Part shown: one piece after another, positions 1,110 to 34,710 of the stretch
Position numbering within the stretch: position 1 is the first letter of the stretch
How the letters are laid out: each line of letters begins with the position of its first letter
NCBI GenBank assembly: GCA_015478655.1
Contig: JADMIJ010000032.1
Coordinates: 1-43,884, forward strand
Direction: 5' to 3'
Length of the DNA stretch: 43,884 nucleotides
Origin: Acidimicrobiales bacterium
GTDB taxonomy: Bacteria; Actinomycetota; Acidimicrobiia; Acidimicrobiales; RAAP-2
Notes under the pieces: model-generated
The model's input: the letters and a program-made list of their open reading frames with translations, nothing else
Told to the model about the DNA's origin: nothing
The model's database searches: none
Program-made: the position numbers and the translations under genes

Positions 1110-1152
1110 ATGGTCGGCTTTCGTCTGCCACATCGCTAGGGCCGAAAGACCC
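1110..1152 (-). promoter_or_regulatory. DosR-type box 1 and -10, for DUF1918-CBS operon
   Basis: The 16-nt box (1137-1152, read on the minus strand) is GGGTCTTTCGGCCCTA. The hexamer GACCAT begins 22 nt after the box end (1115-1110). The predicted start near 1103 gives a leader of about 28 nt to the DUF1918 ATG at 1075. The box family is DevR/DosR (mycobacterial core GGGAC...GTCCC); assignment to this DevR is inference. Confidence 0.75.
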
Positions 1153-1185
1153 CCTGATCATCCACTCGGGGAACTACGGGAATTC

Positions 1186-1228
1186 GGGACCTTCGGCACT
1201 CCCGACTGCTTGTGATGGGCATGAAACT
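1186..1228 (+). promoter_or_regulatory. DosR-type box 2 and weak -10, toward the P-type ATPase remnant
   Basis: Box GGGACCTTCGGCACTC at 1186-1201 with the weak hexamer GAAACT at 1223-1228. It lies 34 bp from box 1 in opposite orientation, forming a divergent pair. The gene served on the plus strand begins at 1426, leaving a leader of about 190 nt with no other supported gene in it. Confidence 0.55.
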
Positions 1229-1425
1229 GATGGGGATGGAACCCACCAAGGGCATGGCGCGGCCATTCGTCACGAGGCCGAATCCTTGCCGTTCTCCGAT
1301 CCCATCTCTCCAGCCCACCTATGAATGCGTTGGCGATGATCGCAGGCCGGAGGTCCCAATGAGCCCTCGGTCTTCGCCGGCACGGATACGACGCTGTCCC
1401 TCACGAGTGGGATACGAGGTGCTCG

Positions 1426-2271
1426 ATGGCTGCCATCCCTGAGACGCACACCCCCGCGGCGGGTAGCGGGTCGCGGCCGGACCATGGTGGTCTCTTCGTC
1501 GATGGGAGCCATCTGGTCCCCGACCCTGATGCGGACGTCGAGGTAGACGTATCGACGACTCCTCAGGGCGTGCCCCCACTTCGGGGTTTGAACTCAGCGG
1601 AGGCCGGCGAACGGCTTTCGATCGACGGTCCGAACCAACTCCCGAAGGCCCGACGCGTACCTGCTTGGCGCCGGTTCGCCAGCCAGTTGGTGCACTTCTT
1701 CGCCCTCATGCTGTGGGTCGCGGGCATCCTGGCCCTCCTGGCCGGCATGCCCGAGCTCGCTATTGCCATCTTCGCGGTAATTCTTGTCAACGGAGCGTTC
1801 GCCTTCGTTCAGGAGTCACGGGCCGAGAGGACTGCTGAGGGCCTGAAGGACCTGTTGCCCCGACGCGCATTCGTCGTCCGTGACGGACGACGGGATGAAA
1901 TCGATGCTGGCGATCTCGTGGTCGGTGATCTGGTCGTCCTCCGTTCCGGAGACAGAATTTCTGCCGACATGGAGGTTCTTGGCGCCGAAGGGCTCACCAT
2001 CGATACTTCGATGCTCACCGGAGAAAGCGCAGCCGTGTCCGTCGCCGAAGGAGAGCAGCTGTTTGCTGGTTGCTTCGTGGTCGGCGGAGAGGGCATGGCG
2101 AGGGTGCAGGCCGCTGGCGCACACACCCGACTGGCCTCGATTGCCGAGTCGACCCGAAAGGGTCGCCGTCCGCCCAGCCCACTAGAACGCGAATTCGGCA
2201 GAGGACGGCGGCGTCGTCCCGCGACTACTGCGAGCAGTCCCCGAGGACGAGGCCATCTCGCGGTCGGATGA
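1426..2271 (+). pseudogene. N-terminal remnant of a CtpF-like P2-type cation ATPase
   Basis: Starts at ATG 1426 (GAGGTG 5-10 nt upstream). The N-terminal cation-ATPase region is clear: GLNSAEAGERLSIDGPNQLP, a first membrane pair at residues about 85-130, and the actuator domain with DTSMLTGESAAV (TGES motif) and GCFVVGGEG. Homology stops near residue 250 at TRLASIAESTRKG..PLERE; the frame then becomes arginine-rich and ends at 2271. The phosphorylation loop (DKTGT), nucleotide-binding domain and the remaining helices are missing, so it cannot pump. CtpF (Rv1997) is a DosR-regulon ATPase in M. tuberculosis, so this looks like a decayed counterpart behind a retained box. Bases 2195-2310 hold another open frame that may be the tail of an unrelated gene brought in by the deletion. 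Confidence 0.8.
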
Positions 2272-2324
2272 CTGGGGGATTCGGCTGGACAGGTCGGACA
2301 GCTGAAGCTGCGCCGGTCCGAATC

Positions 2325-2367
2325 GGGACCTTTGGCCCTACGGATCGCCGCTAGATCGCCGTACCGT
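2325..2367 (+). promoter_or_regulatory. DosR-type box 3 and -10
   Basis: Box GGGACCTTTGGCCCTA at 2325-2340, among the best matches in the window. The -10-like TACCGT (2362-2367) is 22 nt after the box end, the same hexamer at the same distance as at box 11. Predicted start near 2374, a few nucleotides before the small gene at 2388. Confidence 0.8.
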
Positions 2368-2387
2368 CGCACTGGGAGGTGGTTGAT

Positions 2388-2627
2388 GTGGACGTGGAGT
2401 TCGCACTGGCGTTGGCGGTACGGGATTGGACGAGAGGGCACTGTCCGGATGAACCGCGAGTCGCGGACAAGGCCGTGATGTTGGCACTGAGTAGTTGCGC
2501 AGGCGGCGCATCGGTGGCAGAGGCATCTGAGCAGGCTCGTGCTTTCGTTTCCAGTTGGATCCGCCACCCAGCGCACCAGAGGCACCTAGGTGCGCGACAA
2601 ACCCATCAGCTCTTGGTGGCCTCGTGA
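2388..2627 (+). CDS. Small hypothetical protein
   Basis: About 79 residues. GTG 2388 follows GGGAGG at 8 nt; GTG 2379 is an alternative start nearly at the predicted 5' end of the transcript. The product is alanine-rich and helical (FALALAVRDWTRG, then SVAEASEQARAFVSSWIRHP) with two cysteines and no membrane segment or signal peptide. I do not recognise a family. Its position 48 nt after box 3 and its fit to local codon use support it as a real gene. The following coiled-coil gene at 2695 is on the same strand 67 bp on and probably cotranscribed. Confidence 0.6.
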   Translation: MDVEFALALAVRDWTRGHCPDEPRVADKAVMLALSSCAGGASVAEASEQARAFVSSWIRHPAHQRHLGARQTHQLLVAS

Positions 2628-2694
2628 ATCCCCCTCCGGGGAGTGGACCCCAAATGGAACGGTTGAACGAAGAACAAATTCAAGGAGGTCTGCA

Positions 2695-2853
2695 ATGGAA
2701 GTCGACGCCCAAGCACAGATGAGGCGGATAGATGAGCTTGAGCGGCGCGTCGAGTCCTTGGAGCACCGTCTGGTCACGCGGGATGTGCTGGATGACGAGA
2801 TCTGCAGCCTCGAGCGCCGACTACGAGAGGTCAGGGAGCTCTCTGAGGGCTAG
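2695..2853 (+). CDS. 52-residue coiled-coil protein
   Basis: ATG 2695 has a near-perfect AAGGAGGT 5 nt upstream. The product is almost entirely a charged heptad-repeat helix (IDELERRVESLEHRL ... SLERRLREVRELSEG), suggesting a dimeric coiled coil or an adaptor; no known domain. It is likely the second gene of the box-3 transcript. Longer in-frame versions extend upstream to 2590 but lack a binding site and overlap the preceding gene. Confidence 0.65.
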   Translation: MEVDAQAQMRRIDELERRVESLEHRLVTRDVLDDEICSLERRLREVRELSEG

Positions 2854-2860
2854 GTGTCAG

Positions 2861-2886
2861 GCTGACGAGTTCCGCTGACGAGTTCC
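2861..2886 (+). repeat. 13-bp tandem repeat (2 copies)
   Basis: GCTGACGAGTTCC occurs twice back to back (2861-2873, 2874-2886) just after the stop of the coiled-coil gene, in the gap before the convergent PNPOx-like gene. It looks like a slippage duplication. Confidence 0.85.
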
Positions 2887-2984
2887 TTAGTGGTTAGTCG
2901 TTTCACGAGGGAAATTTGGGTATCGAATCGGGTACGGCGTCGCTAAGAGTCTGGGCAAATACCCGCGCGATCGGGATGATCGGG

Positions 2985-3443
2985 CTAGAGCGGTGGCGGC
3001 TCGGGAAGTTCCACTTGCGGTCCCTCGCCGGCGATGCGGAACCTTCGACCGCTGATATTGGTCGCCTCGATGCGCACCAGGCGGAGGTCCATTGTTCCCC
3101 CCGACCAGGGCCCGATGGGGATCGATTTCGCCCTCGCATGTCCATCCTCGTCGCTCACCGCCGAGGCGACGCCTTGGAGCAGGACGCTCCAGCTGGTACC
3201 GCTCAGCGGCTCGTCCCCCTCGGCCTGAAAGGCCACGACAGCGCCTCGGGTGGCGGCATCCAGCTTTGTCCCGAGGATGGTACGAAAGAGCACCGATTCC
3301 CCGAAAAGCGTGAAGTACACCGGGAGGATGACGGGAAGGGCATCGATGCTGGCACCGATGCGCCCGACCGACGCGAGGCTCAAGAGCTCGAAGCACTCTG
3401 GCCGACCGAGGATCGCGCGCTCTGTTTCTCCGCTAGTTCCCAC
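2985..3443 (-). CDS. PNPOx-like flavin-binding protein (Rv0080 type)
   Basis: 152 residues from a GTG at 3443. Split-barrel pattern: CFELLSLASVGRIGASIDALPVILPVYFTLFG at the start, then a WSVLLQGVASAV strand and the C-terminal NISGRRFRI. This matches the pyridoxamine-5'-phosphate-oxidase-like family (Pyridox_ox_2 type), small proteins that bind FMN, FAD or F420; substrate is unknown. One of four members in this window. M. tuberculosis Rv0080 is a DosR-regulon relative. The predicted transcription start (3444) is one base from the GTG, and no ribosome binding site is visible, so the mRNA is probably leaderless. Confidence 0.8.
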   Translation of the reverse strand: MGTSGETERAILGRPECFELLSLASVGRIGASIDALPVILPVYFTLFGESVLFRTILGTKLDAATRGAVVAFQAEGDEPLSGTSWSVLLQGVASAVSDEDGHARAKSIPIGPWSGGTMDLRLVRIEATNISGRRFRIAGEGPQVELPEPPPL

Positions 3444-3450
3444 TTCAACG

Positions 3451-3493
3451 ACATTGGCGGATCGAGAAGGGGCCAGCTAGGGCCGAAAGTCCC
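3451..3493 (-). promoter_or_regulatory. DosR-type box 4 and -10 (leaderless promoter)
   Basis: Minus-strand box GGGACTTTCGGCCCTA at 3478-3493, with CAATGT at 3456-3451. Placing the hexamer at -12 to -7 puts +1 at 3444, next to the GTG at 3443. Confidence 0.8.
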
Positions 3494-3534
3494 AACGCAT
3501 CGATCGGCTCAGCGCTGTCGACTCGCCTCGCTGC

Positions 3535-4341
3535 TCAACCGATGGCTTCGACGTCGTGGTCGGTCGCCTGACCTTTGCGGGGCGGAGGATTCCGAGCGGC
3601 CTCCTCCTCGGCTCTGGCGCCGATGAGCACGAAGACTCCGATGAGTACCAGCCAGAAGTCGTAGAGGAAACCGGCGACAACCATGGCCGTTCCGAGGTAC
3701 CGGGCGATCCGACTGGCCAGAATCGTGGCCTCGAGGTGGCTCCGATGGTGCGCCAGGGCGGCGCGGAGGACCCGCCCACCGTCCATGGGCAAAGCGGGAA
3801 GTAAATTGAACGCCCCGAGGAGCAGGTTCAGCCAGCCCAAACGGACCCACCAGTTACCCACGAACAGGGTAGGGGGCCAGATGTGTGCCCCGGTCACCAG
3901 TCCGGCGACAAGGAGAAGTAGGCCGATGCCCAGGCTGATCAACGGGCCGACGATGGCCACGGCCAACTCATCATTGGGCGCCTTGGGCATCGTCTCCAGC
4001 TGCGACATCCCTCCCAATGGGAACAGGACGATGCCGAGGACATGGGCGCCCCGCCGTCGAGCCACGATGCAATGGGCAACCTCGTGGGCCACGACCGACG
4101 TGAAGAGAGCCACGATCCATGCCAGGCCGGAAACGACGGCACTCGCTCCCGCGCTCCAGTCCACGGCGGCCACCAAGGCGATGAGCAGGAAGAAGCTCCA
4201 GTGGAGCCTGATGGGGATGCCAGCCACTCGGCCGATCGAGAAGCTGTGCCCGTGACCGGCAACCGGCGTGTGCGGATTGGCTCGCTGCGACCGGCCTGCC
4301 GCCACTCCTTTCGGCTTCGGTGTCTCCTGCGTGCCCGACAT
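3535..4341 (-). CDS. M50 site-2-protease-family membrane metallopeptidase (Rip3-like)
   Basis: 268 residues from ATG 4341 (an ATG at 4350 is also in frame but overlaps the predicted -10). Zinc motif HEVAHC (H86, E87, H90) lies in a membrane segment, and the second signature NLLPALPMDGGRV supplies the third ligand. About six hydrophobic segments. Family members cut membrane-embedded substrates such as anti-sigma factors. The C-terminal CBS domains found in many relatives, and in Rv2625c of M. tuberculosis as I recall, are absent; the protein ends with a charged tail after the last helix. Box 5 lies immediately upstream. Rv2625c is a DosR-regulon gene next to the CBS protein Rv2626c; here both types occur within 4 kb. 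Confidence 0.85.
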   Translation of the reverse strand: MSGTQETPKPKGVAAGRSQRANPHTPVAGHGHSFSIGRVAGIPIRLHWSFFLLIALVAAVDWSAGASAVVSGLAWIVALFTSVVAHEVAHCIVARRRGAHVLGIVLFPLGGMSQLETMPKAPNDELAVAIVGPLISLGIGLLLLVAGLVTGAHIWPPTLFVGNWWVRLGWLNLLLGAFNLLPALPMDGGRVLRAALAHHRSHLEATILASRIARYLGTAMVVAGFLYDFWLVLIGVFVLIGARAEEEAARNPPPRKGQATDHDVEAIG

Positions 4342-4348
4342 AGTCACC

Positions 4349-4391
4349 ATCGTCCTCGACCTCTGAGCATCGGACCAGGGCCGAATGTCAT
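4349..4391 (-). promoter_or_regulatory. DosR-type box 5 (degenerate distal half) and -10
   Basis: Minus-strand box ATGACATTCGGCCCTG at 4376-4391: the start-proximal GGCCCT half is intact, the distal half is weak. GACGAT at 4354-4349 keeps the 22-nt phasing. Predicted +1 at 4342 abuts ATG 4341, so the transcript may be leaderless. Confidence 0.6.
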
Positions 4392-4443
4392 CACTGGAAC
4401 CGGCGCGCCGGCCTGCTCAAACCAAGGAAGACAGGTTGACGAT

Positions 4444-5442
4444 CTACTTCCCGTCGCGCATAACCAGCACCGGGCAGTGGGCGTTGCTCACGCAGTGTTC
4501 GCTCACCGACCCCAGCAACATGCCGGCGAATTCGCCGTGGCCCCGACTGCCGACCACCAGTAGGTCTGCTCCCTGGGAGGCCTCCACCAGCACGGGGGAA
4601 GGGTGGCCCTCGACGACGGTTGATGCGATCGACACGCCGGGGTGCGCCTCACGAATCGGCTGGAGAAGGTCGCCGAGCAGCTTCTCGCTCTCGTGTGTCG
4701 GGTCGTAGTCGGAGGGCACGGAGAGCGCCCATCCATAGCTGATAGGCCATTCCCACGTCATGAGGACCTTGAGGCCGGCTCCGGTGAGCTCAGCCTCTGT
4801 GGCTGCCCACTCCAGGGCGGCGATCGACGACTTCGAACCGTCGACGCCTACGACGATCCGGCGATCGGTTTCTGCGCTCGTGGTCATCAGCGCTCCCTCC
4901 TTTGGGAAATTGATGGTACCGGTTCCGGGCGGGATTCCGGACCTGTTCCGATCGGTGCCGTCGGTGGCAGGAGCCTGCCTGTGCTGGCCGACGACGATCA
5001 CCGGGCATCGCGCCAGCTGGACGCATCTCCGACTCACCGAACCGAGCAAGAGGCCTGTGAATCCGCCACGACCCCGCGAACCGACCACGAGGAGATCGGC
5101 CACAGCGCTCTCTTCGATGAGTACTGATTCTGGCAGGCCCGCATGAGTTCTGCTGGCGATCGCGAGCTCCGGAGCGATCCTTTTGGCCTGCGCGGTCGCC
5201 TCGTCGACGTGCTCCCGCATGACCCGGTTCACCTCTTTGACAGAGACAAAGACATGGCCCGGGCCGAAGGCAGTGACAATGGCGAGGACCGCACCCGTCA
5301 GCTGAGCCTGAGTGGCCGCCCACTCCAGGGCGGCCGTCGCATTGGCGGATCCGTCAACACCGACCGCGATCCGACGCGCGGTTCCAACATCTGTCCTATC
5401 AACGTTCTCTTTCGCCACTGCCTCTGGTCCTTTCGCACTCAT
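4444..5442 (-). CDS. Tandem universal stress protein (two USP domains)
   Basis: 332 residues. Domain 1 (about 23-152) starts RRIAVGVDGSANA and ends with the nucleotide-binding GSRGRGGFTGLLLGSVS; domain 2 (about 193-330) starts RRIVVGVDGSKSS and ends GSRGHGEFAGMLLGSVS. Both keep the G-2x-G-9x-G(S/T) motif of ATP-binding USPs. Start ATG 5442 follows AGGGGA. The linker contains an internal ATG (codon 186, base 4887) preceded by AAAGGAGGGAG, so the second domain may also be made alone or the gene may be a recent fusion of two. Tandem USPs (Rv1996, Rv2005c, Rv2623) are core DosR-regulon members in mycobacteria. Probably transcribed from box 6 together with the small gene at 5589-5705. Confidence 0.9.
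   Translation of the reverse strand: MSAKGPEAVAKENVDRTDVGTARRIAVGVDGSANATAALEWAATQAQLTGAVLAIVTAFGPGHVFVSVKEVNRVMREHVDEATAQAKRIAPELAIASRTHAGLPESVLIEESAVADLLVVGSRGRGGFTGLLLGSVSRRCVQLARCPVIVVGQHRQAPATDGTDRNRSGIPPGTGTINFPKEGALMTTSAETDRRIVVGVDGSKSSIAALEWAATEAELTGAGLKVLMTWEWPISYGWALSVPSDYDPTHESEKLLGDLLQPIREAHPGVSIASTVVEGHPSPVLVEASQGADLLVVGSRGHGEFAGMLLGSVSEHCVSNAHCPVLVMRDGK
4885..4903 (-). promoter_or_regulatory. Internal ribosome binding site and ATG inside tandem USP gene
   Basis: AAAGGAGGGAG (4903-4893 on the minus strand) is followed 5 nt later by an in-frame ATG at 4887, exactly at the boundary of the second USP domain. It is a stronger site than the one for the full-length protein. Confidence 0.65.
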
Positions 5443-5760: not shown

Positions 5761-5803
5761 AACGTACGGAAGGAAAGGAACAAGCAATAGGGGAAAAGGT
5801 CCC
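5761..5803 (-). promoter_or_regulatory. DosR-type box 6 and -10
   Basis: Minus-strand box GGGACCTTTTCCCCTA at 5788-5803 and TACGTT at 5766-5761 (TANNNT, 22-nt phasing). Drives the small ORF and presumably the tandem USP gene. It lies just downstream of the devS-like stop. Confidence 0.75.
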
Positions 5804-5874: not shown

Positions 5875-7065
5875 CTACTGACTGAGGGGTACCTGCCACA
5901 CGAGTACCGTCCCGCCACCGACCGGGCTGTCGACTTCGAACTGGCCGTGCAGCTTTTCGGCGCGCCGCCGCAGATTGCCCAGCCCGAGTCCGCCGCCCCC
6001 CGACTCCGACGCACCCATCCCGCGGCCGTCATCTTCAACCCGAAGTCGACAGTGACCATCGGTTGCGGTGACGACGACGGTGGCCATGGTGGCCTGGGCG
6101 TGACGCCCGATATTGGTGACCGCCTCCCGGATGACGGCCAGGAGGTGCTCGCCGACCAGGTCGGGGACGGCGGCATCGACGGGCCCTTCGAAAGAGGCGC
6201 GAACGTCGAAACCGACAACCGGCCTCAGGTCCTGCAACAGCGAGAGCACGTTGTCTCGGAGGCCCCGGCCGAGCCCATCCGATCCCAGCTCGAAGATGCT
6301 GGTCCGGACCTGCCGGATGGTGTCGTCGACGTCAGCGATCGTCGACTTCAACCGGTCCGTGTTGCGCAGTGCGGCCGGATTGGCCTCCATGCTTTGGAGC
6401 GACAGGCCGATTGCGAACAGGCGTTGGATGACCGTATCGTGCAGATCCCGGGCCATCCGGTCCCGCTCCTCGAAGATCGCCACTTCTTGGACTTGCGTAT
6501 GGAGGCGGGCGTTCTCGATGGCGATGCCTGCGGCTATCGCCAGAGCACCGACCAAGCCCTCGTCGTCACTGGTGAACTCTGACCACCCGATCTTGTCGGT
6601 GAGGTAGAGGTTGCCGTACACCTCACCCCGCACCTTGATGGGCACGCCCAGGAACGAGGTCATGGGGGGGTGATGGGGCGGGAAGCCGTAGCTGTCTGCG
6701 TGGGAGCTGAGCCGCGCCAACCGAATAGGCCGGGGGTCACTGAGGAGGAGGCCCAGCACGCCTTTGCCGGTCGGACGAGCACCGATTCTCTGTTCCTCCT
6801 CGGGGTCGAGACCTACGGTGATGAACTCTGACAGTGCGGTCCCGTCCTCGTTCAGTACCCCGAGGGCACCGTAACGGGCATTGGTGATGGAGCGTCCTTC
6901 GTCGATGATGTGCCTGAGCAAGGTGGGTAGGTCCAGGTCCGCCTCGAGCAACAGCGTTGCCTCCAGCACGCGCCGGAGCCTGGCTGGATCCTCTATCGAG
7001 TGGAAGGGCACGCTGGATCCTCCATCGATTGGTAGGGCACGGAGGCCTCCAACGATCCGGACCAC
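5875..7065 (-). CDS. devS: DevS/DosS-like sensor histidine kinase with one GAF domain
   Basis: 396 residues from GTG 7065; a GTG 18 codons further in, just after a GGAGG, is the better-supported start. One GAF domain (about 45-188) contains GFPPHHPPMTSFLGVP; its second histidine (H132) aligns with His149 of M. tuberculosis DevS, the proximal haem ligand. HisKA_3 dimerisation helix with phosphoacceptor H209 in ARDLHDTVIQRLFAIG, then an HATPase domain (EAVTNIGRHA, DDGRGM, GGLGLGNLRRRAE). DevS and DosT carry two GAF domains; this has only the haem-type one. No membrane segments, so it is a cytoplasmic sensor, likely of O2/NO/CO or redox state (inference). Divergent from devR; no DosR box upstream. 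Confidence 0.88.
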   Translation of the reverse strand: MVRIVGGLRALPIDGGSSVPFHSIEDPARLRRVLEATLLLEADLDLPTLLRHIIDEGRSITNARYGALGVLNEDGTALSEFITVGLDPEEEQRIGARPTGKGVLGLLLSDPRPIRLARLSSHADSYGFPPHHPPMTSFLGVPIKVRGEVYGNLYLTDKIGWSEFTSDDEGLVGALAIAAGIAIENARLHTQVQEVAIFEERDRMARDLHDTVIQRLFAIGLSLQSMEANPAALRNTDRLKSTIADVDDTIRQVRTSIFELGSDGLGRGLRDNVLSLLQDLRPVVGFDVRASFEGPVDAAVPDLVGEHLLAVIREAVTNIGRHAQATMATVVVTATDGHCRLRVEDDGRGMGASESGGGGLGLGNLRRRAEKLHGQFEVDSPVGGGTVLVWQVPLSQ

Positions 7066-7223: not shown

Positions 7224-7895
7224 TTGAGTATCAGGGTGTTCCTTCTCGACGATCATGAGATCGTGCGTACCGGACTCCGGTCGTTGTTCGAGACAGCGGA
7301 AGACTTTGCCGTGGTGGGCGAGGCAGCCACCGGTCAGGAGGCGCTGGATCGGATTCCCCCCGTCCGTCCTGACGTGGCCATCCTCGACGTGCGGCTGCCG
7401 GACGGGAGCGGCATCGAGGTCTGTCGGGAGATCCGATCGAGCTCGCCCGAGATCGCCTGCGTGATGTTGACCTCCTATGCAGACGACGAGGCCCTGTTCG
7501 CCGCCATTATGGCCGGCGCTGCGGGCTATGTCCTGAAGCAAGTTGGTGCGACGAGCCTCTTGGAGGACATTCGGCGGGTGGCCGGCGGTCAGTCGTTGCT
7601 CGACCCGGCACTGACCGAGCGCGTCCTCGAGCGAATGCGGGATCGACCCCACGAGGATCCTCTCTTGGCCAGCCTGACGTCTCAGGAGCGCAAGATCCTC
7701 GACCTCGTGGCCGAAGGTCAGACCAATCGTCAGATTGCCGCCACGCTCTACCTGGCCGAGAAGACGGTGAAGAACTACGTGTCCAACCTCTTGGCCAAGC
7801 TGGGCATGGAGCGACGGACACAGGCTGCCAGCTATGCCACGCGGATTGCCGAGCGTTCGGCTCAGGCACGTCGGACTGATGGCACCGGGACGTGA
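7224..7895 (+). CDS. devR: DevR/DosR-like NarL-family response regulator
   Basis: Receiver domain plus LuxR-type HTH, 223 residues from TTG 7224 (GGAGG 7 nt upstream; GTG 7200 is the longer option). The TTG start aligns with the start of M. tuberculosis DosR. Phospho-acceptor Asp55 lies in AILDVRLPDGSGIE. The recognition region EKTVKNYVSNLLAKLGMERR is essentially identical to mycobacterial DevR, including the Lys and Asn residues that contact GGGAC half-sites and the Thr residues involved in activation. This is strong reason to expect it to bind the sixteen boxes in the window. Its own promoter region (7066-7223) shows no box, unlike the autoregulated mycobacterial system. Confidence 0.95.
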   Translation: MSIRVFLLDDHEIVRTGLRSLFETAEDFAVVGEAATGQEALDRIPPVRPDVAILDVRLPDGSGIEVCREIRSSSPEIACVMLTSYADDEALFAAIMAGAAGYVLKQVGATSLLEDIRRVAGGQSLLDPALTERVLERMRDRPHEDPLLASLTSQERKILDLVAEGQTNRQIAATLYLAEKTVKNYVSNLLAKLGMERRTQAASYATRIAERSAQARRTDGTGT

Positions 7896-8311: not shown

Positions 8312-8677
8312 TCACGTGCTGTCGCGACTGCAACGCAGCGCCGCCTCGGCAGCATCGTATGCACTGCGGAGATCTCGCAGCAGCTGTTCCAACCCCAGAC
8401 GCAGTGAGCTGAGATTGGAATCGGCGTCGTCGCCAAGGTCGCTGAGGCGCGACCGCGCCGCCAGGTAGACGTTCTGCGTGGTGTCGAGACGCTTGCGAAT
8501 CTCGTCTCGGATGTCCAGGTTGGCCAGATCGAGTTGCACCAGCAACTCGTCGATCTTCGCCCGCCACTCATCGAGCGTCAGTCCCATCTGTTCGATGGCG
8601 CTGCGCTCTGACTCTGCCCCCGACCCCATGTGCTCGGTGTGCCCGGCACCCTTCTCGCTTGTTGCAACTTTGGGCAT
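8312..8677 (-). CDS. Helical hypothetical protein
   Basis: 121 residues from ATG 8677, which has GGAGGAGGAG just upstream. The first 30 residues are polar and probably disordered. The rest forms long amphipathic helices (LDEWRAKIDELLVQLDLA, RKRLDTTQNVYLAARSRL, SLRLGLEQLLRDLRSAYD), as in a helical bundle or apolipoprotein-like protein. No signal peptide or membrane segment. Family unknown. Predicted start of transcription from box 7 (about 8702) leaves a 25-nt leader. Confidence 0.72.
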   Translation of the reverse strand: MPKVATSEKGAGHTEHMGSGAESERSAIEQMGLTLDEWRAKIDELLVQLDLANLDIRDEIRKRLDTTQNVYLAARSRLSDLGDDADSNLSSLRLGLEQLLRDLRSAYDAAEAALRCSRDST

Positions 8678-8708: not shown

Positions 8709-8751
8709 ATGGTGTCGGAGTGATGCCCGCACAGGTAGGGCCAAACGTCCC
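8709..8751 (-). promoter_or_regulatory. DosR-type box 7 and -10
   Basis: Minus-strand box GGGACGTTTGGCCCTA at 8736-8751 with CACCAT at 8714-8709. Back-to-back with box 8 (24 bp apart) in a divergent promoter. Confidence 0.8.
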
Positions 8752-8775: not shown

Positions 8776-8818
8776 AGGACCTTTGGCCCTGGTCGCACGA
8801 TCTCGGTCGTGGTCACCT
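8776..8818 (+). promoter_or_regulatory. DosR-type box 8, weak -10
   Basis: Box AGGACCTTTGGCCCTG at 8776-8791; hexamer at the expected distance is TCACCT (8813-8818), a poor -10 lacking A in position 2. The next supported start is 9033, leaving an unusually long leader of about 200 nt in which I find no convincing gene. Confidence 0.65.
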
Positions 8819-9032: not shown

Positions 9033-9455
9033 ATGAGCCGGTCCGGATCCAATGGACATCTGGAGGTCCTCGACCGAACTGAGTGCGTGCAGTTCCTGGC
9101 TGGGCAGGGAGTCGGTCGGGTCGCTGGCACCGTCGAGGGGCGTCCGGTGATCCTTCCGGTCAACTATGCAGTGGTGGGGGATGCCGTCTTGGTTCGAGCG
9201 CGGCGGGGTGGTGACCTCGACAGGATCACGTGCGACACCGTGGTGGCTTTCGAGGTCGATGGCAGTGACAGCATCTATCACGAGGGCTGGAGCGTGCTGG
9301 TCGTCGGTCGATCCGCCCATGTCACGGACCCAGCTGAGCTCGACGCGCTCCGAAGCCTGCGCCTCCTGTCCTGGGCAGGCGAGGGACGGGACCTCTTCAT
9401 CCGCATCGTCCTTGACGACGTCACCGGTCGACGCATCCACCACCTCGAGCCCTGA
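9033..9455 (+). CDS. PNPOx-like flavin-binding protein
   Basis: 140 residues from ATG 9033 (GTG and other starts lie 5 codons upstream). Same family and layout as the protein at 2985-3443: ECVQFLAGQGVGRVAGTVEG, VILPVNYAVVGD, then GWSVLVVGRSAHV and C-terminal VTGRRIHHLEP. The conserved P-V-N-Y strand and WSVL strand form the split-barrel core that binds FMN/F420 in the family. Substrate unknown. Probable target of box 8. Its stop codon lies inside a 10-bp inverted repeat (9442-9480). Confidence 0.8.
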   Translation: MSRSGSNGHLEVLDRTECVQFLAGQGVGRVAGTVEGRPVILPVNYAVVGDAVLVRARRGGDLDRITCDTVVAFEVDGSDSIYHEGWSVLVVGRSAHVTDPAELDALRSLRLLSWAGEGRDLFIRIVLDDVTGRRIHHLEP

Positions 9456-9529: not shown

Positions 9530-9572
9530 GGGACCTTTGGCCCTATGCGGTCGCCTCGGAGAGGCATCCAAT
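9530..9572 (+). promoter_or_regulatory. DosR-type box 9 and -10
   Basis: Box GGGACCTTTGGCCCTA at 9530-9545, identical to box 3. Hexamer TCCAAT at 9567-9572. Predicted +1 near 9579; first start codon at 9616. Confidence 0.8.
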
Positions 9573-10756: not shown

Positions 10757-10834
10757 CCTGGGCGGCCTCCCCGTCGCCAGCGAATCGAATGGTCACAGTC
10801 GAAGGGCACCACCGTGCAGGAGCAGAGGGCGTCG

Positions 10835-16283: not shown

Positions 16284-16374
16284 CTGGCCGTGACCGGGGG
16301 AGCGGGGAACGCGGTCAGGCGCAGACGGCGGTCATCCGGCTCTGTGTCAGACCTGGCGATCAGCTCGGGCATGG

Positions 16375-18780: not shown

Positions 18781-18859
18781 CGGCCACACCTCGGCTCTGT
18801 CGCTGGATCGGTACTCGTCACGGCGTCGGCCTGGCGAAGGAATCTGGCAAGGTGGGCAG

Positions 18860-20410: not shown

Positions 20411-20453
20411 ACCTTGGCACCGATGGAGCGTGGAAACTAGGGACTATTGACCC
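20411..20453 (-). promoter_or_regulatory. DosR-type box 10 and -10 (leaderless promoter)
   Basis: Minus-strand box GGGTCAATAGTCCCTA at 20438-20453, close to a true palindrome, with CAAGGT at 20416-20411. +1 falls on base 20404, the first base of the PNPOx-like start codon. Divergent partner of box 11. Confidence 0.75.
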
Positions 20454-20520: not shown

Positions 20521-20563
20521 TGGACCTTCGGCCCTATCCGCACCTCCTCATACTTCCTACCGT
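20521..20563 (+). promoter_or_regulatory. DosR-type box 11 and -10
   Basis: Box TGGACCTTCGGCCCTA at 20521-20536; TACCGT at 20558-20563, the same hexamer and distance as box 3. Predicted +1 near 20570, leader of about 69 nt to the alcohol dehydrogenase. Confidence 0.8.
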
Positions 20564-23373: not shown

Positions 23374-23416
23374 AGGACTTTTGGCCCTAGCCCCGACGCG
23401 ACGGTTTCCGTACGGT
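23374..23416 (+). promoter_or_regulatory. DosR-type box 12 and -10
   Basis: Box AGGACTTTTGGCCCTA at 23374-23389; TACGGT at 23411-23416 (22-nt phasing). Predicted +1 near 23423, about 73 nt before the aldehyde dehydrogenase ATG. Confidence 0.8.
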
Positions 23417-25520: not shown

Positions 25521-25563
25521 GGGACCTTTGGCACTGGTTCAGCGCCCCCAGTGACCCCATAAT
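25521..25563 (+). promoter_or_regulatory. DosR-type box 13 with strong -10
   Basis: Box GGGACCTTTGGCACTG at 25521-25536; CATAAT at 25558-25563 is the best -10 in the series and sits at the same 22-nt step. Predicted +1 near 25570, 12 nt before the WS/DGAT ATG. Confidence 0.85.
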
Positions 25564-26964: not shown

Positions 26965-27443
26965 GCGCGGCCGTTCAGTTGCTCTCCCCCCTCGAGGCAG
27001 GCTTCCTGTACTTGGAGTCGGCACGGACGCCGATGCACATGGGTTCGGTTGGCATCTTCGAAGGTGCCCCCTCCGTGACCGGCACGGGAGACTGCGTGTT
27101 GGGGCCGTCCGGGCCGAGATCGAGAGCCGCCTGCATCTGGTGCCGAAGGTCCGCCGACGTGTGCGGCTCTCGAGCCTCGGCCTGGCCGCTCCGGCGTGGG
27201 TGGACGATCCCCTGTTCGACCTGGCCAATCACGTCCGTGAAACCACACTACGGGCGCCTATGGCGGGCAACTGACGGTGGGCCTGCTTGCCGACCCCGAG
27301 GCGTGCCGGACCTCGACGTGTTGGCGGCTGGCATCGGTCAGGCGTTCTCCGAGTTGGTCGCTGCCGCGGGCGTTCGAAGCGGCGGCTCACCCGAAGAGGC
27401 AGTTGAAACCGGGATTGGTGTACAGGGAGGTTCGTCGTCATGA
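26961..27443 (+). pseudogene. Degenerate second WS/DGAT gene
   Basis: The first ~40 codons from GTG 26961 read LSPLEAGFLYLESARTPMHM, a normal WS/DGAT start. The pattern then jumps to another frame at about 27090 (IESRLHLVPKVRRRVRL, WVDDPLFDLANHV), ends near 27274, and only a C-terminal piece (about 27300-27443, IGQAFSELVAAAGV) remains. The central ~300 residues including HHxxxDG are missing, so it is inactive. It overlaps the intact paralogue upstream and the acyl-CoA synthetase start downstream, so it once belonged to the same operon. Confidence 0.8.
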
Positions 27444-29032
27444 AAGAGCTCGTCTACCCCAGGCTCCTGTTGCCACGCCTCGAGCAGCTAGGCGACAAGG
27501 TGGCATTCATCGACGTGACCGGTGATGGCATTCGCTACCAGGGCACCTTCGCCAACCACCTGGACCGTCTGCAGAAGCTGGCGAGTGCCATGCGGAGCGA
27601 GCTCGGTGTGACCCCTGGCGACCGGTTCGGGGTGCTGGCCACGAATGGTCATGAATTCATCGAGCTCTATCACGCGGCCATGTTCGGCGCGGGAATCATC
27701 AACCCGCTCAACATCCGTTTCACCGCTGCCGAGCTGGCCTACGTCCTCAACGACTCCGGTTCCAGGGTGGTTTTCACCGATCCGGTGTTCGCCTCGCTTC
27801 TCGATCGCGCCCGCCAGGAGGGGGCCAAGGTCGACAAGGTCATCGTCTTCGGCGAGTCAGGTGGCGGCACGGCCGGACTGGACGGCGACACGCTCGGCTA
27901 TGAAGAGGTCGTGGCGGCCGGCGAGCCGATCATGCCACCGGAGCCAGAAGAGAACGATGCCGCGATTCTCATGTACACCGGGGGGACGACGGGCTTCCCC
28001 AAGGGTGCACTGCTCGAGCAGCGGGCCGAGGTGCTCAACGTGTACCACGTTCTGGCCGAGATAGGGCTGCGCGAGGATCGGCGCTTCTTGTTCCAGTCAC
28101 CCATGTTCCACGCCGCGCTGGTGGCCGGCGTCCTCGGTATCCCCGCCACCGGAGCCACCTCGGTGACGATACCGTTGTTCGATCCCGGGTTGGTCGTAGA
28201 CGTCATCGAGGGTCAGAAGATTGACACGACGATGGTGATCCCGGTCATGCTGTCGATGCTGGAGCAAGTCGAAGGCTTCAGGCCAGAACGTATGCGGTCG
28301 TTGCGTCAACTGGTCTACGGCGCCTCTCCGATTTCGCAGGACCTCATTGGTCGATGGCTGAAGATGCTGCCTGAGACGGACTTCATCCAGGGATACGGCA
28401 TGACTGAGGCGGCTTCGGCCCTGACCTTCCTGGGCCCCGAGGACCACCGGCGCGGTGGTGACGTTCTGACCACTGCGGGCAGAGCCCTGTTCGGTGTCGA
28501 GTTGCGCGTGACCGATTCACTCGGCAACATCCTCCCACTGGGAGAGGCCGGGGAGGTATGCGCCCGTGGCGGCAACCTCATGCGCGAGTACTGGATGAGG
28601 CCGGAAGAGACGACAACGGTGATGCGTGACGGGTGGTATCGAACGGGAGACATGGGATTCATCGACGACGACGGCCTCTTGCACCTCACTGATCGAATGA
28701 AGGACATGATCGTCACGGGCGGGGAGAACGTCTACTCGATCGAGGTGGAGAACGCCCTTTCTTCTCATCCTGCCGTGCAAGAGGTCGCGGTGATCGGGAT
28801 TCCGAGCGACAAATGGGGGGAGGCGGTGCACGCCATCGTGGTCCTCCACCAGGGGATGAGGGCGTCGGCCGAGGAGTTGATCGAGTACGCCCGCCAGTTC
28901 CTCGCCGGGTTCAAGGTCCCGAAATCGGTCGAGTTCCAGGACGGTCCGCTTCCGCTGTCCGGTGCGTTCAAGCCGCTCAAGCGCGAGCTGAGGCGTGGTT
29001 TTTGGGAGGGTCACGAACGCCACGTGAGCTGA
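27440..29032 (+). CDS. Fatty-acyl-CoA synthetase (FadD type)
   Basis: 530 residues from ATG 27440 (GGGAGG 9 nt upstream). ANL superfamily motifs: P-loop YTGGTTGFPKGALL, GYGMTEAA, DGWYRTGDMGFIDDDG, hinge-type RMKDMIVTGGENVY and the C-terminal catalytic Lys region GAFKPLKRELR. Activates a fatty acid to acyl-CoA via acyl-AMP. In the WS/DGAT transcript, so it likely supplies acyl-CoA for storage lipid synthesis. A clear terminator follows. Confidence 0.93.
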   Translation: MKELVYPRLLLPRLEQLGDKVAFIDVTGDGIRYQGTFANHLDRLQKLASAMRSELGVTPGDRFGVLATNGHEFIELYHAAMFGAGIINPLNIRFTAAELAYVLNDSGSRVVFTDPVFASLLDRARQEGAKVDKVIVFGESGGGTAGLDGDTLGYEEVVAAGEPIMPPEPEENDAAILMYTGGTTGFPKGALLEQRAEVLNVYHVLAEIGLREDRRFLFQSPMFHAALVAGVLGIPATGATSVTIPLFDPGLVVDVIEGQKIDTTMVIPVMLSMLEQVEGFRPERMRSLRQLVYGASPISQDLIGRWLKMLPETDFIQGYGMTEAASALTFLGPEDHRRGGDVLTTAGRALFGVELRVTDSLGNILPLGEAGEVCARGGNLMREYWMRPEETTTVMRDGWYRTGDMGFIDDDGLLHLTDRMKDMIVTGGENVYSIEVENALSSHPAVQEVAVIGIPSDKWGEAVHAIVVLHQGMRASAEELIEYARQFLAGFKVPKSVEFQDGPLPLSGAFKPLKRELRRGFWEGHERHVS

Positions 29033-31688: not shown

Positions 31689-31735
31689 TCAGCACCAGCC
31701 TCGTGGCCCAGGGTCATGAGCGGCATACGGGAGCC

Positions 31736-32782
31736 CTACGCCGTACTGGACACTGGTGACGGAGGTGGAGCCGCGGTCGGCCCCTTTCCGGTAACGGCCT
31801 TTGCCGAGATATCCCGGTAGTGCTGTCGCCAGATAAGGCGGTAGATCCGGGTCCAGCGCGGGATCGAGCGAAGTCCGGGGATGAAGGGAACCAAGGCCAA
31901 CAGCAAGGTCAGGACCATCATGATGCCCCAGACCTGGAGATCGGCGTTCGACGAGGTCTTCATCGGTGGCACCTGGTACCAGAGGGTGTACAACCACAGC
32001 CAGGCCTGTCCCGGGTAGCTGCCCGTCTCGTTCATCATCCCCCACTGGCTCCCGGAGAGGTGCTGGCCCTGGGCCAGATTGGCCAGGTAGGTGCCATCGG
32101 CGATGAACAGCAGCGGCTTGGTGTAGTCGGTGCTGTAGAACTGGCGGGAGCTGAGCAAGGCACCGTCCAGAGCCCCGCTGCGGGCCATCGAGGTCAGGGA
32201 ACTGATCATCGGGCCGACCGGACCGTATGGACCCCGGGGGATCTTCAGCGCACCCCGGTCAAATGTCGCATCGGCTACAGCCTTTTCGTAGGCGGTCGTC
32301 CACTTCGCCTGCTGGTCGGGCGAAGCAGAGGTGTAGGAAGTGACTGCGGCTTGCAGCTGCGGCTGATCAGGGAGCGTCCTCAGCGGTGCAATTACGTAGT
32401 CGTTGGCGGTGTCGATCGGATGGTGCACACCCAACCAATGGTTTGGAGAGAACGGACCTATCGACTGGGCTGTTCCCGCAGTGTTGTATGGCGGACCGTA
32501 CGTAGCGATGGCGCTGGTGCCGTCGAGCTCGGTGATGGCCGTCTGGGCGAAATCGACCGCGTCGGAGGTCGACCACGACTTCACGGTCACCGGCTTGTCG
32601 TCCGGCGAGGAGAAGATGACGGCCAGGCCTGCCACAAGAACCGATACCACCACGAGGGCGATCAGGAACTCCTTGACCAGATCGTAGGGGAGGTACTTCC
32701 CGTGCCATTCCTCGACGTCACGGTCCGGGTTGAAGCGTCGACGGCGACGGGACCCGCCGGAGGCGCCTGCCGCGACCGTCAT
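31736..32782 (-). CDS. Membrane subunit of cytochrome b6-like complex (subunit IV-like with large extracytoplasmic domain)
   Basis: 348 residues from ATG 32782, overlapping the cytochrome b stop (ATGA). After a basic N-terminus, KYLPYDLVKEFLIALVVVSV starts TM1 (about 35-60). A ~200-residue domain without cysteines or haem motif follows, then WLWLYTLWYQVPPM and a second hydrophobic segment (about 285-310) ending PFIPGLRSIPRW. The two ends resemble cytochrome b6f subunit IV/cytochrome b C-terminal helices, with the quinone-site PEWY region replaced; this reading is tentative. No CxxCH, so it is not a cytochrome c. Third gene of the operon behind box 14. Confidence 0.6.
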   Translation of the reverse strand: MTVAAGASGGSRRRRRFNPDRDVEEWHGKYLPYDLVKEFLIALVVVSVLVAGLAVIFSSPDDKPVTVKSWSTSDAVDFAQTAITELDGTSAIATYGPPYNTAGTAQSIGPFSPNHWLGVHHPIDTANDYVIAPLRTLPDQPQLQAAVTSYTSASPDQQAKWTTAYEKAVADATFDRGALKIPRGPYGPVGPMISSLTSMARSGALDGALLSSRQFYSTDYTKPLLFIADGTYLANLAQGQHLSGSQWGMMNETGSYPGQAWLWLYTLWYQVPPMKTSSNADLQVWGIMMVLTLLLALVPFIPGLRSIPRWTRIYRLIWRQHYRDISAKAVTGKGPTAAPPPSPVSSTA

Positions 32783-33516
32783 GACCGGCCCTCAGTGGGG
32801 ACTGCCTGGCTGTTGGGACCTACTTCTCCCTGGCTGTCGGGAGTTCCCTTTGCTTCTGTTGCCGGTGCGTCAGGTGGTGCAAAGGGGGGCACCACGCCGC
32901 GGAGGCGCACCAACAGGACGTGCACGCCCACTAGCGCCACGACTACCAGTGGGAGGAGGACGATGTGCCACATGAGCATCTGGCCGAAGTTGGTGACGTT
33001 GAAGATGGCCCCGGCCCCGGTCGAGTTGATCCCGTCCTTGGCCTGGGTGCTGACCCACTGGGAGTCGAAGTTCTGCTGGGACAGGTATCCGGTGAAGGCA
33101 GCGCCGACCGACACCACGAAGGAGACCACACCGGTGATCCACGTGGCCCGTCGCCGGCCACGCCACGCCGCCATGAAGAACTTGCCCCACAGATGGACGA
33201 CCATGGCGAAGAAGAAGACCTCGACGCTCCACATATGGAGGGAGTTCACGAAGAGCCCCGTGGTCGACAGGTGCCACCACGACGGCCCGAAGATGGCCAA
33301 GACCAATCCGGTGACTATGACCACCCCCAGTGCCGAGAGGGTCAGGGCCCCGAAGACATAGATCCACGAGGCGACATACGCGGGCTGGCGGTCCGGCATC
33401 AGGCGCTCGGGCGGTAGTGCGGCCACGGCAGCACCACGGAGTTTGGCGGATAGCTGGTGAGAGTCTTCAGGCAGGCCAGCTCCGCTTTCCACGGGGGTCT
33501 CGGTGCCTGTGGTCAT
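32779..33516 (-). CDS. Cytochrome b6-type dihaem subunit
   Basis: 245 residues from ATG 33516, which overlaps the preceding stop. Four transmembrane segments. Haem ligands H94 and H108 (NSLHMWSVEVFFFAMVVHLW) and H184 and H199 (MLMWHIVLLPLVVVALVGVH): spacings of 14 and 15 residues, the b6 pattern rather than the bc1 pattern of 14 and 14. GYLSQQNFDSQW follows helix C where the quinol-site cd region lies. C-terminal tail is disordered. It lacks the C-terminal half of cytochrome b, supplied perhaps by the next gene. No Rieske or cytochrome c gene is in the window, so the electron acceptor is unknown. Confidence 0.85.
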   Translation of the reverse strand: MTTGTETPVESGAGLPEDSHQLSAKLRGAAVAALPPERLMPDRQPAYVASWIYVFGALTLSALGVVIVTGLVLAIFGPSWWHLSTTGLFVNSLHMWSVEVFFFAMVVHLWGKFFMAAWRGRRRATWITGVVSFVVSVGAAFTGYLSQQNFDSQWVSTQAKDGINSTGAGAIFNVTNFGQMLMWHIVLLPLVVVALVGVHVLLVRLRGVVPPFAPPDAPATEAKGTPDSQGEVGPNSQAVPTEGRS

Positions 33517-33704
33517 CGTCCACGGCCCCCATGCCGCCGGAACGGGATGAGGATGGCGGCGAAGAAGACGATCACCATGAGTCCGATGACGACCAGGTTG
33601 GCCACGGAGATCTGGATGAATCCCCAGTGGACGTACTTTCCGGGTCCGGTCAGGTTGATCAGACTCCCGACCAGGCTGTCTTTGACTGCTCCAAGCATTT
33701 GCAC
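33513..33704 (-). CDS. 63-aa single-TM subunit of the cytochrome b operon
   Basis: GTG 33704 follows AGGAGGT at 7 nt, the best binding site of the operon. One membrane helix (about 30-54: ISVANLVVIGLMVIVFFAAI) after an N-terminal amphipathic stretch, ending in PFRRHGGRGR. No family recognised; size and position suggest a small accessory subunit. Stop overlaps the cytochrome b start. Confidence 0.75.
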   Translation of the reverse strand: MQMLGAVKDSLVGSLINLTGPGKYVHWGFIQISVANLVVIGLMVIVFFAAILIPFRRHGGRGR

Positions 33705-33724
33705 TATGTGACCTCCTGGTATGG

Positions 33725-33767
33725 AGGCTAGGGACGTAGGGGAGGGGCGACCAGGGTCGAAGGTCCC
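33725..33767 (-). promoter_or_regulatory. DosR-type box 14 and -10, for cytochrome operon
   Basis: Minus-strand box GGGACCTTCGACCCTG at 33752-33767; TAGCCT (TANNNT) at 33730-33725. Predicted +1 near 33718, 14 nt before the GTG at 33704. Confidence 0.78.
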
Positions 33768-33840
33768 CGAAATTCGGGTCGATGCCGTCGATCAAGAGAT
33801 TCCTCTCCAGGTTCGTCCAAATGAAGAGCCGCCGGAACTC

Positions 33841-33883
33841 GGGACTATCGGCCCTGGCGCCATGCCCGGGACCACGCCACGCT
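33841..33883 (+). promoter_or_regulatory. DosR-type box 15 and weak -10
   Basis: Box GGGACTATCGGCCCTG at 33841-33856; CACGCT at 33878-33883. Oriented toward the plus-strand gene at 34132 with a long leader (about 240 nt). Confidence 0.6.
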
Positions 33884-34131
33884 GGTCTGATGGACCGTGT
33901 TTCGACCGCACCAGGTATCGGTGGCCCTGAGGGCATGGCGGTTCAGGTGCACACGAGTTCGGGCACAATCCAACGTGTTGGTCTCTCTGGACGATGAGTG
34001 CCTTGATTCACTTCATTGCTCGCAACGTGGTATGTGACCCCGCGTCTCCATCAGCAGCAAGCGGTAGCAATGACGACGACCGAGGGGCCACGAACGACCA
34101 GGCCTCCGGATCCACGGAGAACGGCGATTCC

Positions 34132-34606
34132 ATGATCGAAATCGATGAAATTGTCGATCGCTGGTCCAATCTGCGCCACGAAGCAGCCAAGAGGGAAGCC
34201 CAGGCTGAGGCTGAGAGGGAGCGGTTCGTACAGGCCTTCCAAGACATCACACACGCGGTAATACGGCCGGCCATGGAAATGGCAATCGAACGCCTTCGAC
34301 AAGACGGCGGCGGCGGCTTCATCGAACAACACGAGGTGGACGTCCTTCACAAGCCGCGGGTGACGTTGTGGATGTCGCTGGACGGTGAGATCTCTGGCTC
34401 GCCCCGTCAGGACTTGAACCCATTCCTGCAACTGGACGCGAATGCAGCCCACCGGGATCGACGTCTGGGAGGGCGACATGGTGGACAAATCGGGTTCGAG
34501 CACAGCGACGGGCCCTTGGGACTTGACCGAAGTGTCTTCCGATGGCGTCATCGAAAGAATCATTGGCATCCTTCGGCGCGCCGCGACCCACGGGGTGTCA
34601 GCCTGA
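34132..34606 (+). CDS. Hypothetical protein, interrupted by a frameshift
   Basis: ATG 34132 (GGAGAA upstream). N-terminal ~45 residues form a charged helix (WSNLRHEAAKREAQAEAERE), followed by AFQDITHAVIRPAMEMAIER and a beta-rich part (VTLWMSLDGEISG, LNPFLQLDAN). At about 34436-34450 the coding pattern shifts by one base into the frame ending TGA 34604-34606: TGIDVWEGDMV, WDLTEVSSDGVIERIIGILR. The unshifted frame runs into arginine/histidine-rich sequence to 34620. Repaired length is about 157 residues. No family recognised. Behind box 15; the SQR operon starts 130 bp on. Confidence 0.6.
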
Positions 34607-34667
34607 GCAAGTGGGTTTGACCAACTCCAAGCTCGTCTTCTCTGGGGGACGCTGACACCGCACTGAT

Positions 34668-34710
34668 GGGACTTTGTCCCCTACCAGCTTCAGGGAGTGC
34701 CTGGCACTCT
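34668..34710 (+). promoter_or_regulatory. DosR-type box 16 and -10, for the sulfur operon
   Basis: Box GGGACTTTGTCCCCTA at 34668-34683, nearly palindromic and closest to the mycobacterial GGGACT...GTCCC form; CACTCT at 34705-34710. Predicted +1 near 34717, 19 nt before the SQR GTG. Confidence 0.75.

What the first reader, a model, noticed from the sequence alone, without database searches (positions are those of the whole stretch)
1110..34710. Sixteen phased DosR-type promoters: box end to -10 is 22 nt in every case
Seen: 16 boxes of the form GGGAC-N-GGCCCTA precede transcription units. Counting by hand, the hexamer starting 22 nt after the last base of the 16-mer has T at position 6 in 16/16 and A at position 2 in 14/16 (TACCGT twice, TACGGT, CATAAT, TAGCCT, TACGTT among them). 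This fixed register puts the box centre near -41.5, a class II activator geometry, and argues that nearly all the boxes are functional. Known: DevR/DosR binds GGGAC half-sites, and the DevR here has an identical recognition helix.
Basis: partly seen in the sequence, partly recalled or inferred. Interest (0 to 1): 0.9.

Follow-up and report, generated by a model that had tools for sequence, protein, structure and literature searches.

The report
DosR-type hypoxia regulon in soil Acidimicrobiales
A soil actinobacterium distantly related to mycobacteria appears to carry sixteen low-oxygen-response promoters in about 34 kb, each with a regulator site at a set distance from the promoter's -10 element, much as reported for the dormancy regulon of mycobacteria.

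Summary
All 16 lie outside genes. Outside the window, all 10 exact boxes of this genome are in register, but 5 at 22 nt and 5 at 23; of 34 one-mismatch boxes only 9 are. In relatives it is 26 at 22 and 4 at 23 of 33. In 11 aligned orthologous promoters 15 of 16 box columns, 1 of 21 spacer columns and 3 of 6 hexamer columns are conserved.

The window encodes a DevR ortholog, a kinase with a DevS-type GAF domain, stress proteins and a WS/DGAT. It is best read as a DosR/DevR regulon with class II promoters (box centre near -42.5), in Acidimicrobiales judging by named relatives.

That geometry is published for mycobacteria, so this is a new member of a known kind. Differences: tandem boxes rare, no near-consensus box at devR or its kinase gene, a single-GAF kinase, a 22-or-23-nt register. 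Binding, start sites and hypoxic induction were not tested.

The parts
1110..1152 (-). box GGGTCTTTCGGCCCTA + 21 nt + GACCAT; before DUF1918 (875-1105) and a CBS-domain gene (379-828/1014)
   Evidence: predicted +1 at 1103, ATG at 1105
1186..1228 (+). box GGGACCTTCGGCACTC + GAAACT; divergent partner of 1152-; upstream of a P-type ATPase N-terminal fragment (1426-2271)
2325..2367 (+). box GGGACCTTTGGCCCTA + TACCGT; no clear gene downstream (82-codon ORF at 2379-2627, no Pfam hit)
3451..3493 (-). box GGGACTTTCGGCCCTA + CAATGT; PNPOx-like gene 2985-3443, GTG 1 nt after the predicted +1
4349..4391 (-). box ATGACATTCGGCCCTG + GACGAT; M50 peptidase gene 3535-4341, ATG 1 nt after the predicted +1
5761..5803 (-). 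box GGGACCTTTTCCCCTA + TACGTT; universal stress protein gene 4444-5442, leader about 312 nt
8709..8751 (-). box GGGACGTTTGGCCCTA + CACCAT; sll1863-family stress gene 8312-8677; conserved in orthologs
8776..8818 (+). box AGGACCTTTGGCCCTG + TCACCT (A2 missing); divergent partner; PNPOx-like gene 9033-9455
9530..9572 (+). box GGGACCTTTGGCCCTA + TCCAAT (A2 missing); likely operon USP - HTH/PNPOx - GNAT - histone-deacetylase-like - USP (9800-13581)
20411..20453 (-). box GGGTCAATAGTCCCTA + CAAGGT (weakest box); PNPOx-like gene 19982-20404, ATG at the predicted +1
20521..20563 (+). box TGGACCTTCGGCCCTA + TACCGT; zinc alcohol dehydrogenase 20639-21652 and MFS 21750-23342
23374..23416 (+). box AGGACTTTTGGCCCTA + TACGGT; aldehyde dehydrogenase 23496-25064 and DUF779 25079-25450
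25521..25563 (+). box GGGACCTTTGGCACTG + CATAAT; WS/DGAT wax ester/triacylglycerol synthase 25582-26964, then AMP-binding enzyme 27440-29032
33725..33767 (-). box GGGACCTTCGACCCTG + TAGCCT; small ORF 33513-33704 and cytochrome b-like 32779-33516
33841..33883 (+). box GGGACTATCGGCCCTG + CACGCT; divergent partner of 33767-; downstream gene uncertain
34668..34710 (+). box GGGACTTTGTCCCCTA + CACTCT; pyridine nucleotide-disulphide oxidoreductase 34736-35998, leader 19 nt
7224..7895 (+). DevR/DosR ortholog (receiver + LuxR/GerE HTH); no box of 8 bits or more upstream
5875..7011 (-). histidine kinase: one GAF domain (DevS GAF-A-like) + HisKA_3 + HATPase; no box of 8 bits or more upstream

Best explanation
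A DosR/DevR-type low-oxygen regulon. When the oxygen (or NO/CO) state of the kinase's GAF haem changes, the kinase phosphorylates DevR (inferred). DevR~P binds the asymmetric dyad GGGAC-N4-GGCCCTA (inferred from recognition helix and box). The promoter-proximal half-site takes the place of the -35 element, 21-22 nt before a YANNNT-like -10, so DevR contacts sigma and RNA polymerase as a class II activator centred near -42.5, and transcription starts about 7 nt after the -10, in some genes at the start codon itself (register shown from sequence; contacts and start inferred). The targets encode stress proteins and enzymes of fermentative redox balance and lipid storage (functions inferred from families).
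For: Box-only matrix finds exactly the 16, 14 with the -10 at 22 nt. Register outside the window: 10 of 10 exact boxes of this genome (5 at 22, 5 at 23) and 30 of 33 boxes of relatives (26 at 22, 4 at 23). Spacer unconserved while box and hexamer ends are kept. All 16 outside genes. DevR best PDB relative is M. tuberculosis DevR, E 1.2e-65; kinase GAF best relative is DevS, E 5e-44. Box-DevR co-occurrence p 8e-8. Gene content overlaps the OsdR list: USPs, PNPOx, PPDK, hemerythrin (PMC5069765, passages). Predicted +1 within 2 nt of the start codon of four Pfam-supported genes (875-1105, 2985-3443, 3535-4341, 19982-20404).
Against: No binding, start-site or expression data. Two of 16 lack A2. 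Of 34 one-mismatch boxes elsewhere in this genome 25 show neither register, including all 14 boxes with fewer than two A/T in N4; many are probably chance matches. The exact boxes outside the window split evenly between 22 and 23, so the register is not rigid. devR and its kinase gene have no near-consensus box, unlike mycobacterial devR. Three box-positive genomes of the order lack a strong DevR match. Box 2325+ has no clear gene. No clear register in the other loci, mostly Streptomyces and kin. The leaderless signal over 59 phased promoters is modest: ATG or GTG 7-8 nt after T6 in 14, but also 7 at 5 nt and 6 at 20 nt.
Confidence: 0.88

Rival explanations
1. The boxes are sites of a different NarL/FixJ-family regulator of this genome, not of the DevR at 7224.
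For: The genome holds 21 matches to the DevR query; a response regulator lies directly downstream of a boxed GAF kinase on contig C78; three genomes have exact boxes without a strong DevR match.
Against: The next best match in this genome scores 154 bits against 486. The C78 regulator lacks the DevR recognition helix; the other paralogs' helices were not read. Boxes co-occur with DevR orthologs, and 14 of the 41 extended-pattern matches of the genome are on the devR contig.
Confidence: 0.07
2. The box plus hexamer is a promoter of an alternative sigma factor, the box holding its -35 element, with no activator.
For: The box is oriented: T at position 15 in all of 72 boxes and A at 16 in 0.75 (partly set by how boxes were chosen), without a matching TA on the upstream side, where T reaches 0.42 and A 0.10.
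Against: GGCCCTA ends 21-22 nt before the hexamer, too far for usual -35/-10 spacing (general knowledge). The distal half-site GGGAC is conserved too (partly set by how boxes were chosen). The 16-mer is a dyad like published DevR/OsdR sites (PMC5069765, PMC6448022, passages).
Confidence: 0.03
3. The boxes are real DevR sites but the A..T register is chance or a by-product of the reader's choice of boxes.
Against: Blind matrix recovery, exact boxes elsewhere 10 of 10 in register, chance of 14 of 16 is 7e-20, spacer diverged while both ends are kept.
Confidence: 0.01

Closest known systems
DosR/DevR dormancy regulon of Mycobacterium tuberculosis (DevR, DevS/DosT)
   Same: DevR ortholog with nearly the same recognition helix; GAF kinase of DevS type; GGGAC dyad box; start-proximal site overlapping the -35 element, likened to class II CRP promoters (PMC5360333, PMC3029386, passages); USP genes.
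   Different: Tandem same-direction second boxes rare: 13 of 72 boxes have a second site 15-60 nt upstream, 10 facing the other way (7 distinct divergent pairs) and 3 tandem, whereas two or more cooperative sites are described for M. tuberculosis; no near-consensus box at devR or the adjacent kinase; one GAF domain (that DevS and DosT have two is recalled).
OsdR/OsdK regulon of Streptomyces coelicolor
   Same: Orthologous two-component system; targets include USPs, PNPOx, PPDK, hemerythrin and alcohol dehydrogenase (PMC5069765, passages).
   Different: Published consensus is the symmetric AGGGCCGATCGGCCCT; osdR has its own predicted box; box positions in the table rows I saw run from -47 to -295; the box here is asymmetric and at 22 or 23 nt from the -10.

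Membership tests
DosR/DevR regulon | NarL-family regulator orthologous to DevR with its recognition helix | tested here: met
   3c3w best hit, one change in LAEKTVKNYVSxLLAKL; 69% identical to the DevR-like proteins of L061 (Streptacidiphilus) and L069 (Saccharothrix)
DosR/DevR regulon | Sensor kinase with a DevS/DosT-type GAF domain | tested here: met
   GAF matches DevS GAF-A, E 5e-44; one GAF only
DosR/DevR regulon | Haem binding by that GAF domain | not tested
   His in HHPPM and Tyr in NLYLTDK align to DevS; that these are the haem ligand and distal Tyr is recalled
DosR/DevR regulon | Dyad box with GGGAC half-site upstream of regulon genes | tested here: met
   stringent mycobacterial consensus GGGACTTNNGNCCCT (PMC6448022, passage)
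DosR/DevR regulon | Start-proximal box overlaps the -35 element | tested here: met
   By register to the -10; transcription starts not measured
DosR/DevR regulon | Core targets such as USPs and triacylglycerol synthase | tested here: met
   USP, WS/DGAT, CBS, M50, PNPOx and P-type ATPase fragment
DosR/DevR regulon | Common but not defining: two or more cooperative boxes per promoter | tested here: inconclusive
   3 of 72 boxes with a tandem second site; cryptic weak sites not excluded. A promoter with a single recognised box is known in M. tuberculosis (PMC5360333, passage).
DosR/DevR regulon | Common but not defining: devR autoregulated through a box | tested here: not met
   Within 400 nt upstream the best 16-mer has 3-5 mismatches in 39 of 39 DevR hits, and 2-5 in 35 of 36 kinase hits (one had no sequence). 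M. avium dosR has a motif but was not among its strongly induced genes, about 4-fold by RT-qPCR (PMC11876180, passage).
DosR/DevR regulon | Induction by hypoxia, NO or CO through DevR~P | not testable with these tools
   needs RNA and protein experiments

The most novel reading that the evidence does not exclude
Acidimicrobiia keep a minimal form of the DosR switch: one oriented box, 22 or 23 nt from the -10, is enough; neighbouring boxes mostly serve divergent promoters; and feedback runs through the sensor (a second DevS/DosT-like kinase gene on contig C78 has its own exact box) rather than through devR. Tandem cooperative boxes and devR autoregulation would then be additions in mycobacteria.
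Probability: 0.35. Interest if true: 0.6.

Novelty: new member of a known kind. Interest (0 to 1): 0.45.

Why it matters
It carries the dormancy regulon best known from tuberculosis into uncultured soil bacteria of another class, with dozens of natural promoter variants that define box, spacing and -10 by comparison alone. That makes single-site DevR activation and the ancestral purpose of the regulon (hypoxic survival in soil, with fermentation and lipid storage) testable without a pathogen. The refined 43/44-nt signature can help predict DevR targets in unstudied genomes, where the box alone gives many chance matches.

Tried and rejected
Sampling noise: rejected by blind matrix recovery and independent sets. 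Alternative-sigma promoter: disfavoured on spacing and dyad. Tandem second box at a fixed spacing: not found. The first test (71 boxes) showed no peak; a more sensitive one (72 boxes) found 13 with a second site against 1 in the reversed control, which resolved into 10 divergent and 3 tandem sites. Register in the other loci, mostly Streptomyces and Kitasatospora but with some Acidimicrobiales such as L076: inconclusive; GGGACNNNNGNCCC gave 8 of 64 at 23 but 10 of 64 at 46, in related sequences. My first set of own-genome boxes outside the window was a picked one: all 10 exact but 15 of 34 one-mismatch boxes, leaning to A/T-rich centres, chosen before the downstream letters were seen. Its rates (12 of 25, 11 of 23, at 22 nt) are replaced by the complete set, in which 1 of the 19 added boxes is in register. 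A non-coding RNA after box 2325+: no Rfam match in the window, no terminator-like site in 2250-3050. Homologs of ORF 33994-34620: none in 20 relatives. Literature: no held paper has both 'acidimicrobi' and 'dosr' or 'dormancy survival regulator'. (devR) was badly set (whole words) and says nothing. The DevR promoter-layout paper I recall as Chauhan 2011 was not held. An earlier count gave 61 rows and control 7; the recount is 62 and 6.
Full report
What was claimed. Sixteen GGGAC-N4-GGCCCTA boxes, each followed 22 nt later by a hexamer with T6 (16 of 16) and A2 (14 of 16), read as DosR-type class II promoters.

Check of the observation. The loose pattern alone is barely above chance, 84 matches against 66 in shuffles, so selection had to be excluded. 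Twenty dinucleotide shuffles give a mean of 1.6 at 10 bits and 0.3 at 14 bits. All 16 lie outside my gene models, in the 12% of 16-mer positions that are intergenic, and the binomial chance of A2 with T6 in 14 of 16 at a given offset is 7e-20 (gene models partly by hand).

Independence and register. In boxes chosen without the hexamer, NANNNT peaks at 22 nt: 13 of 18 in the window and 26 of 33 in relatives, against means of 0.37 and 0.79 and maxima of 2 and 4 at offsets other than 21-23. For this genome outside the window the first set was picked, so I completed it: all 44 places with 0-1 mismatch. All 10 exact boxes are in register, 5 at 22 nt and 5 at 23; of 34 one-mismatch boxes 8 are at 22, 1 at 23 and 25 at neither. 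With at least two A/T in N4 it is 19 of 30, with fewer 0 of 14. Over all 44, offset 22 has 13 and 23 has 6; offsets other than 21-23 average 0.88, maximum 4. In relatives the exclusive classes are 26 at 22, 4 at 23 and 3 at neither. So a good box lies 22 or 23 nt from the -10, and the strict 22 is a feature of the window. Three loci of the relatives' set (L050, L052, L054) have titles that do not name Acidimicrobiia; L054 gave 2 of the 33 boxes.

A whole-genome search with box + 21 nt + YANNNT, up to 3 mismatches, gives 41 matches against 8 for the reversed pattern, 14 of them in the window. Across 198 genomes of the order, an exact box with A..T at 22 occurs in 41 genomes (62 rows, reversed control 6) and at 23 in 26 genomes (33 rows, control 2).

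Footprint by evolution. All 15 have a 0-1 mismatch box in register (13 at 22, 2 at 23, where the choice among candidate boxes favoured ones in register; the mismatch counts were rechecked without that). Aligned with the window, 11 promoters keep 15 of 16 box columns and 3 of 6 hexamer columns in at least 10 rows, but 1 of 21 spacer columns, 0 of 10 upstream and 0 of 32 downstream. The PNPOx queries of the window (paralogs that hit overlapping loci) gave boxes of up to 3 mismatches in register in 9 of 11, 9 of 11 and 9 of 10 hits, under the same favouring choice.

What the box looks like. In the relatives' 33 boxes it reads GGGAC-s-TTC-GGCCCTA-cc; then position 38 is C 0.55 or G 0.30, 39 A 0.79, 43 T 0.82 and 50 A 0.61. 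Position 50 is 7 nt after T6, a fair place for the start, which puts the dyad centre (7.5) at -42.5. The logo shows no TTGACA-like element. In the window the predicted start lies within 2 nt of the start codon for DUF1918 (875-1105), PNPOx (2985-3443), M50 (3535-4341) and PNPOx (19982-20404), and leaders are 12, 19 and 25 nt for WS/DGAT, the oxidoreductase at 34736 and sll1863. Over 59 phased promoters ATG or GTG begins 7 or 8 nt after T6 in 14, but single positions elsewhere reach 7, so leaderless starts are suggested, not shown.

Regulator and sensor. DevR 7224-7895 has M. tuberculosis DevR as best solved relative (E 1.2e-65), with the recognition helix kept except one Arg to Asn change. The kinase 5875-7011 has one GAF domain closest to DevS GAF-A (E 5e-44), then HisKA_3 and HATPase; that the aligned His and Tyr are haem-contact residues is recalled. 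The next best DevR match in this genome scores 154 bits against 486. In 197 other genomes of the order, an exact GGGACNTTYGGCCCTA occurs in 33 of 105 with a DevR match of E up to 1e-59 and in 3 of 92 without (counted by hand; cut-off placed in the gap seen in the data; Fisher p 8e-8; genome size not controlled). The exact box is found 56 times against 5 for the reversed pattern.

The regulon. Besides the genes in the parts list, boxes elsewhere in the genome precede genes for GAPDH, pyruvate phosphate dikinase, a 4Fe-4S protein, a P-type ATPase with a hemerythrin domain, a P-type ATPase with cupredoxin domains, a phosphoketolase-like ORF (N-terminal domain only), a second DevS/DosT-like GAF kinase, and small membrane proteins. 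These resemble the OsdR list of S. coelicolor: USPs, PPDK, PNPOx, hemerythrin, alcohol dehydrogenase (PMC5069765, passages). Fermentative redox balance and lipid storage under low oxygen is inference from families.

Where it differs from mycobacteria. (1) Of 72 boxes (window 16, rest from the sets fetched), 13 have a second site 15-60 nt upstream; 10 face the other way (7 distinct pairs) and 3 are tandem. In M. tuberculosis two or more cooperative sites were described as important (PMC3029386, passages), with a single recognised site at DrrS (PMC5360333, passages). My test may miss cryptic weak sites. (2) Within 400 nt upstream the best 16-mer has 3-5 mismatches in 39 of 39 DevR hits and 2-5 in 35 of 36 kinase hits, the other having no upstream sequence to test. 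(3) One GAF domain.

Organism. Named relatives with the closest DevR (up to 85% identity) are Acidimicrobiaceae and Acidimicrobiales metagenome bins, several named palsa or bog.

Novelty. The class II layout and the box are published for mycobacteria and a counterpart for Streptomyces. No held paper has both 'acidimicrobi' and 'dosr'. I file it as a new member of a known kind, with variant features that need experiments.

Noticed in passing
window 1426-2271 and 2325-2985: P-type ATPase gene holds only the N-terminal part (E1-E2 profile 2-114 of 181) and is followed by one of the strongest boxes (2325+) with no clear gene: a truncated target, a small protein (2379-2627) or an RNA.
   Followed up: partly
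L131 (own genome C78:3000-9000): Divergent exact boxes, both in the 23-nt register, lie between a second DevS/DosT-like GAF kinase (followed by a regulator without the DevR helix) and a phosphoketolase-like ORF with only the N-terminal domain; feedback on the sensor side is possible.
   Followed up: partly
own genome, exact boxes outside the window: Exact boxes elsewhere split 5 to 5 between the 22- and 23-nt registers, while none of the window's 16 is at 23; why the cluster around devR keeps to 22 is unexplained.
   Followed up: partly
window 9800-13581: Likely operon USP - HTH/PNPOx fusion - GNAT - histone-deacetylase-like - USP downstream of box 9530+.
   Followed up: no
window 13818-19954: Phosphoketolase (with a GH65 gene) and acetate kinase genes are divergent with overlapping starts in my gene models and have no box of 8 bits or more between them, although the cluster around them does.
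   Followed up: no
L133:691-3246 (own genome C103): P-type ATPase with a C-terminal hemerythrin domain behind a box, leader 14 nt by prediction.
   Followed up: no
window 33994-34620: ORF after box 33841+ has no homolog in 20 relatives; an ORF on the other strand (34051-34563) scores as coding, so the true gene is uncertain.
   Followed up: partly
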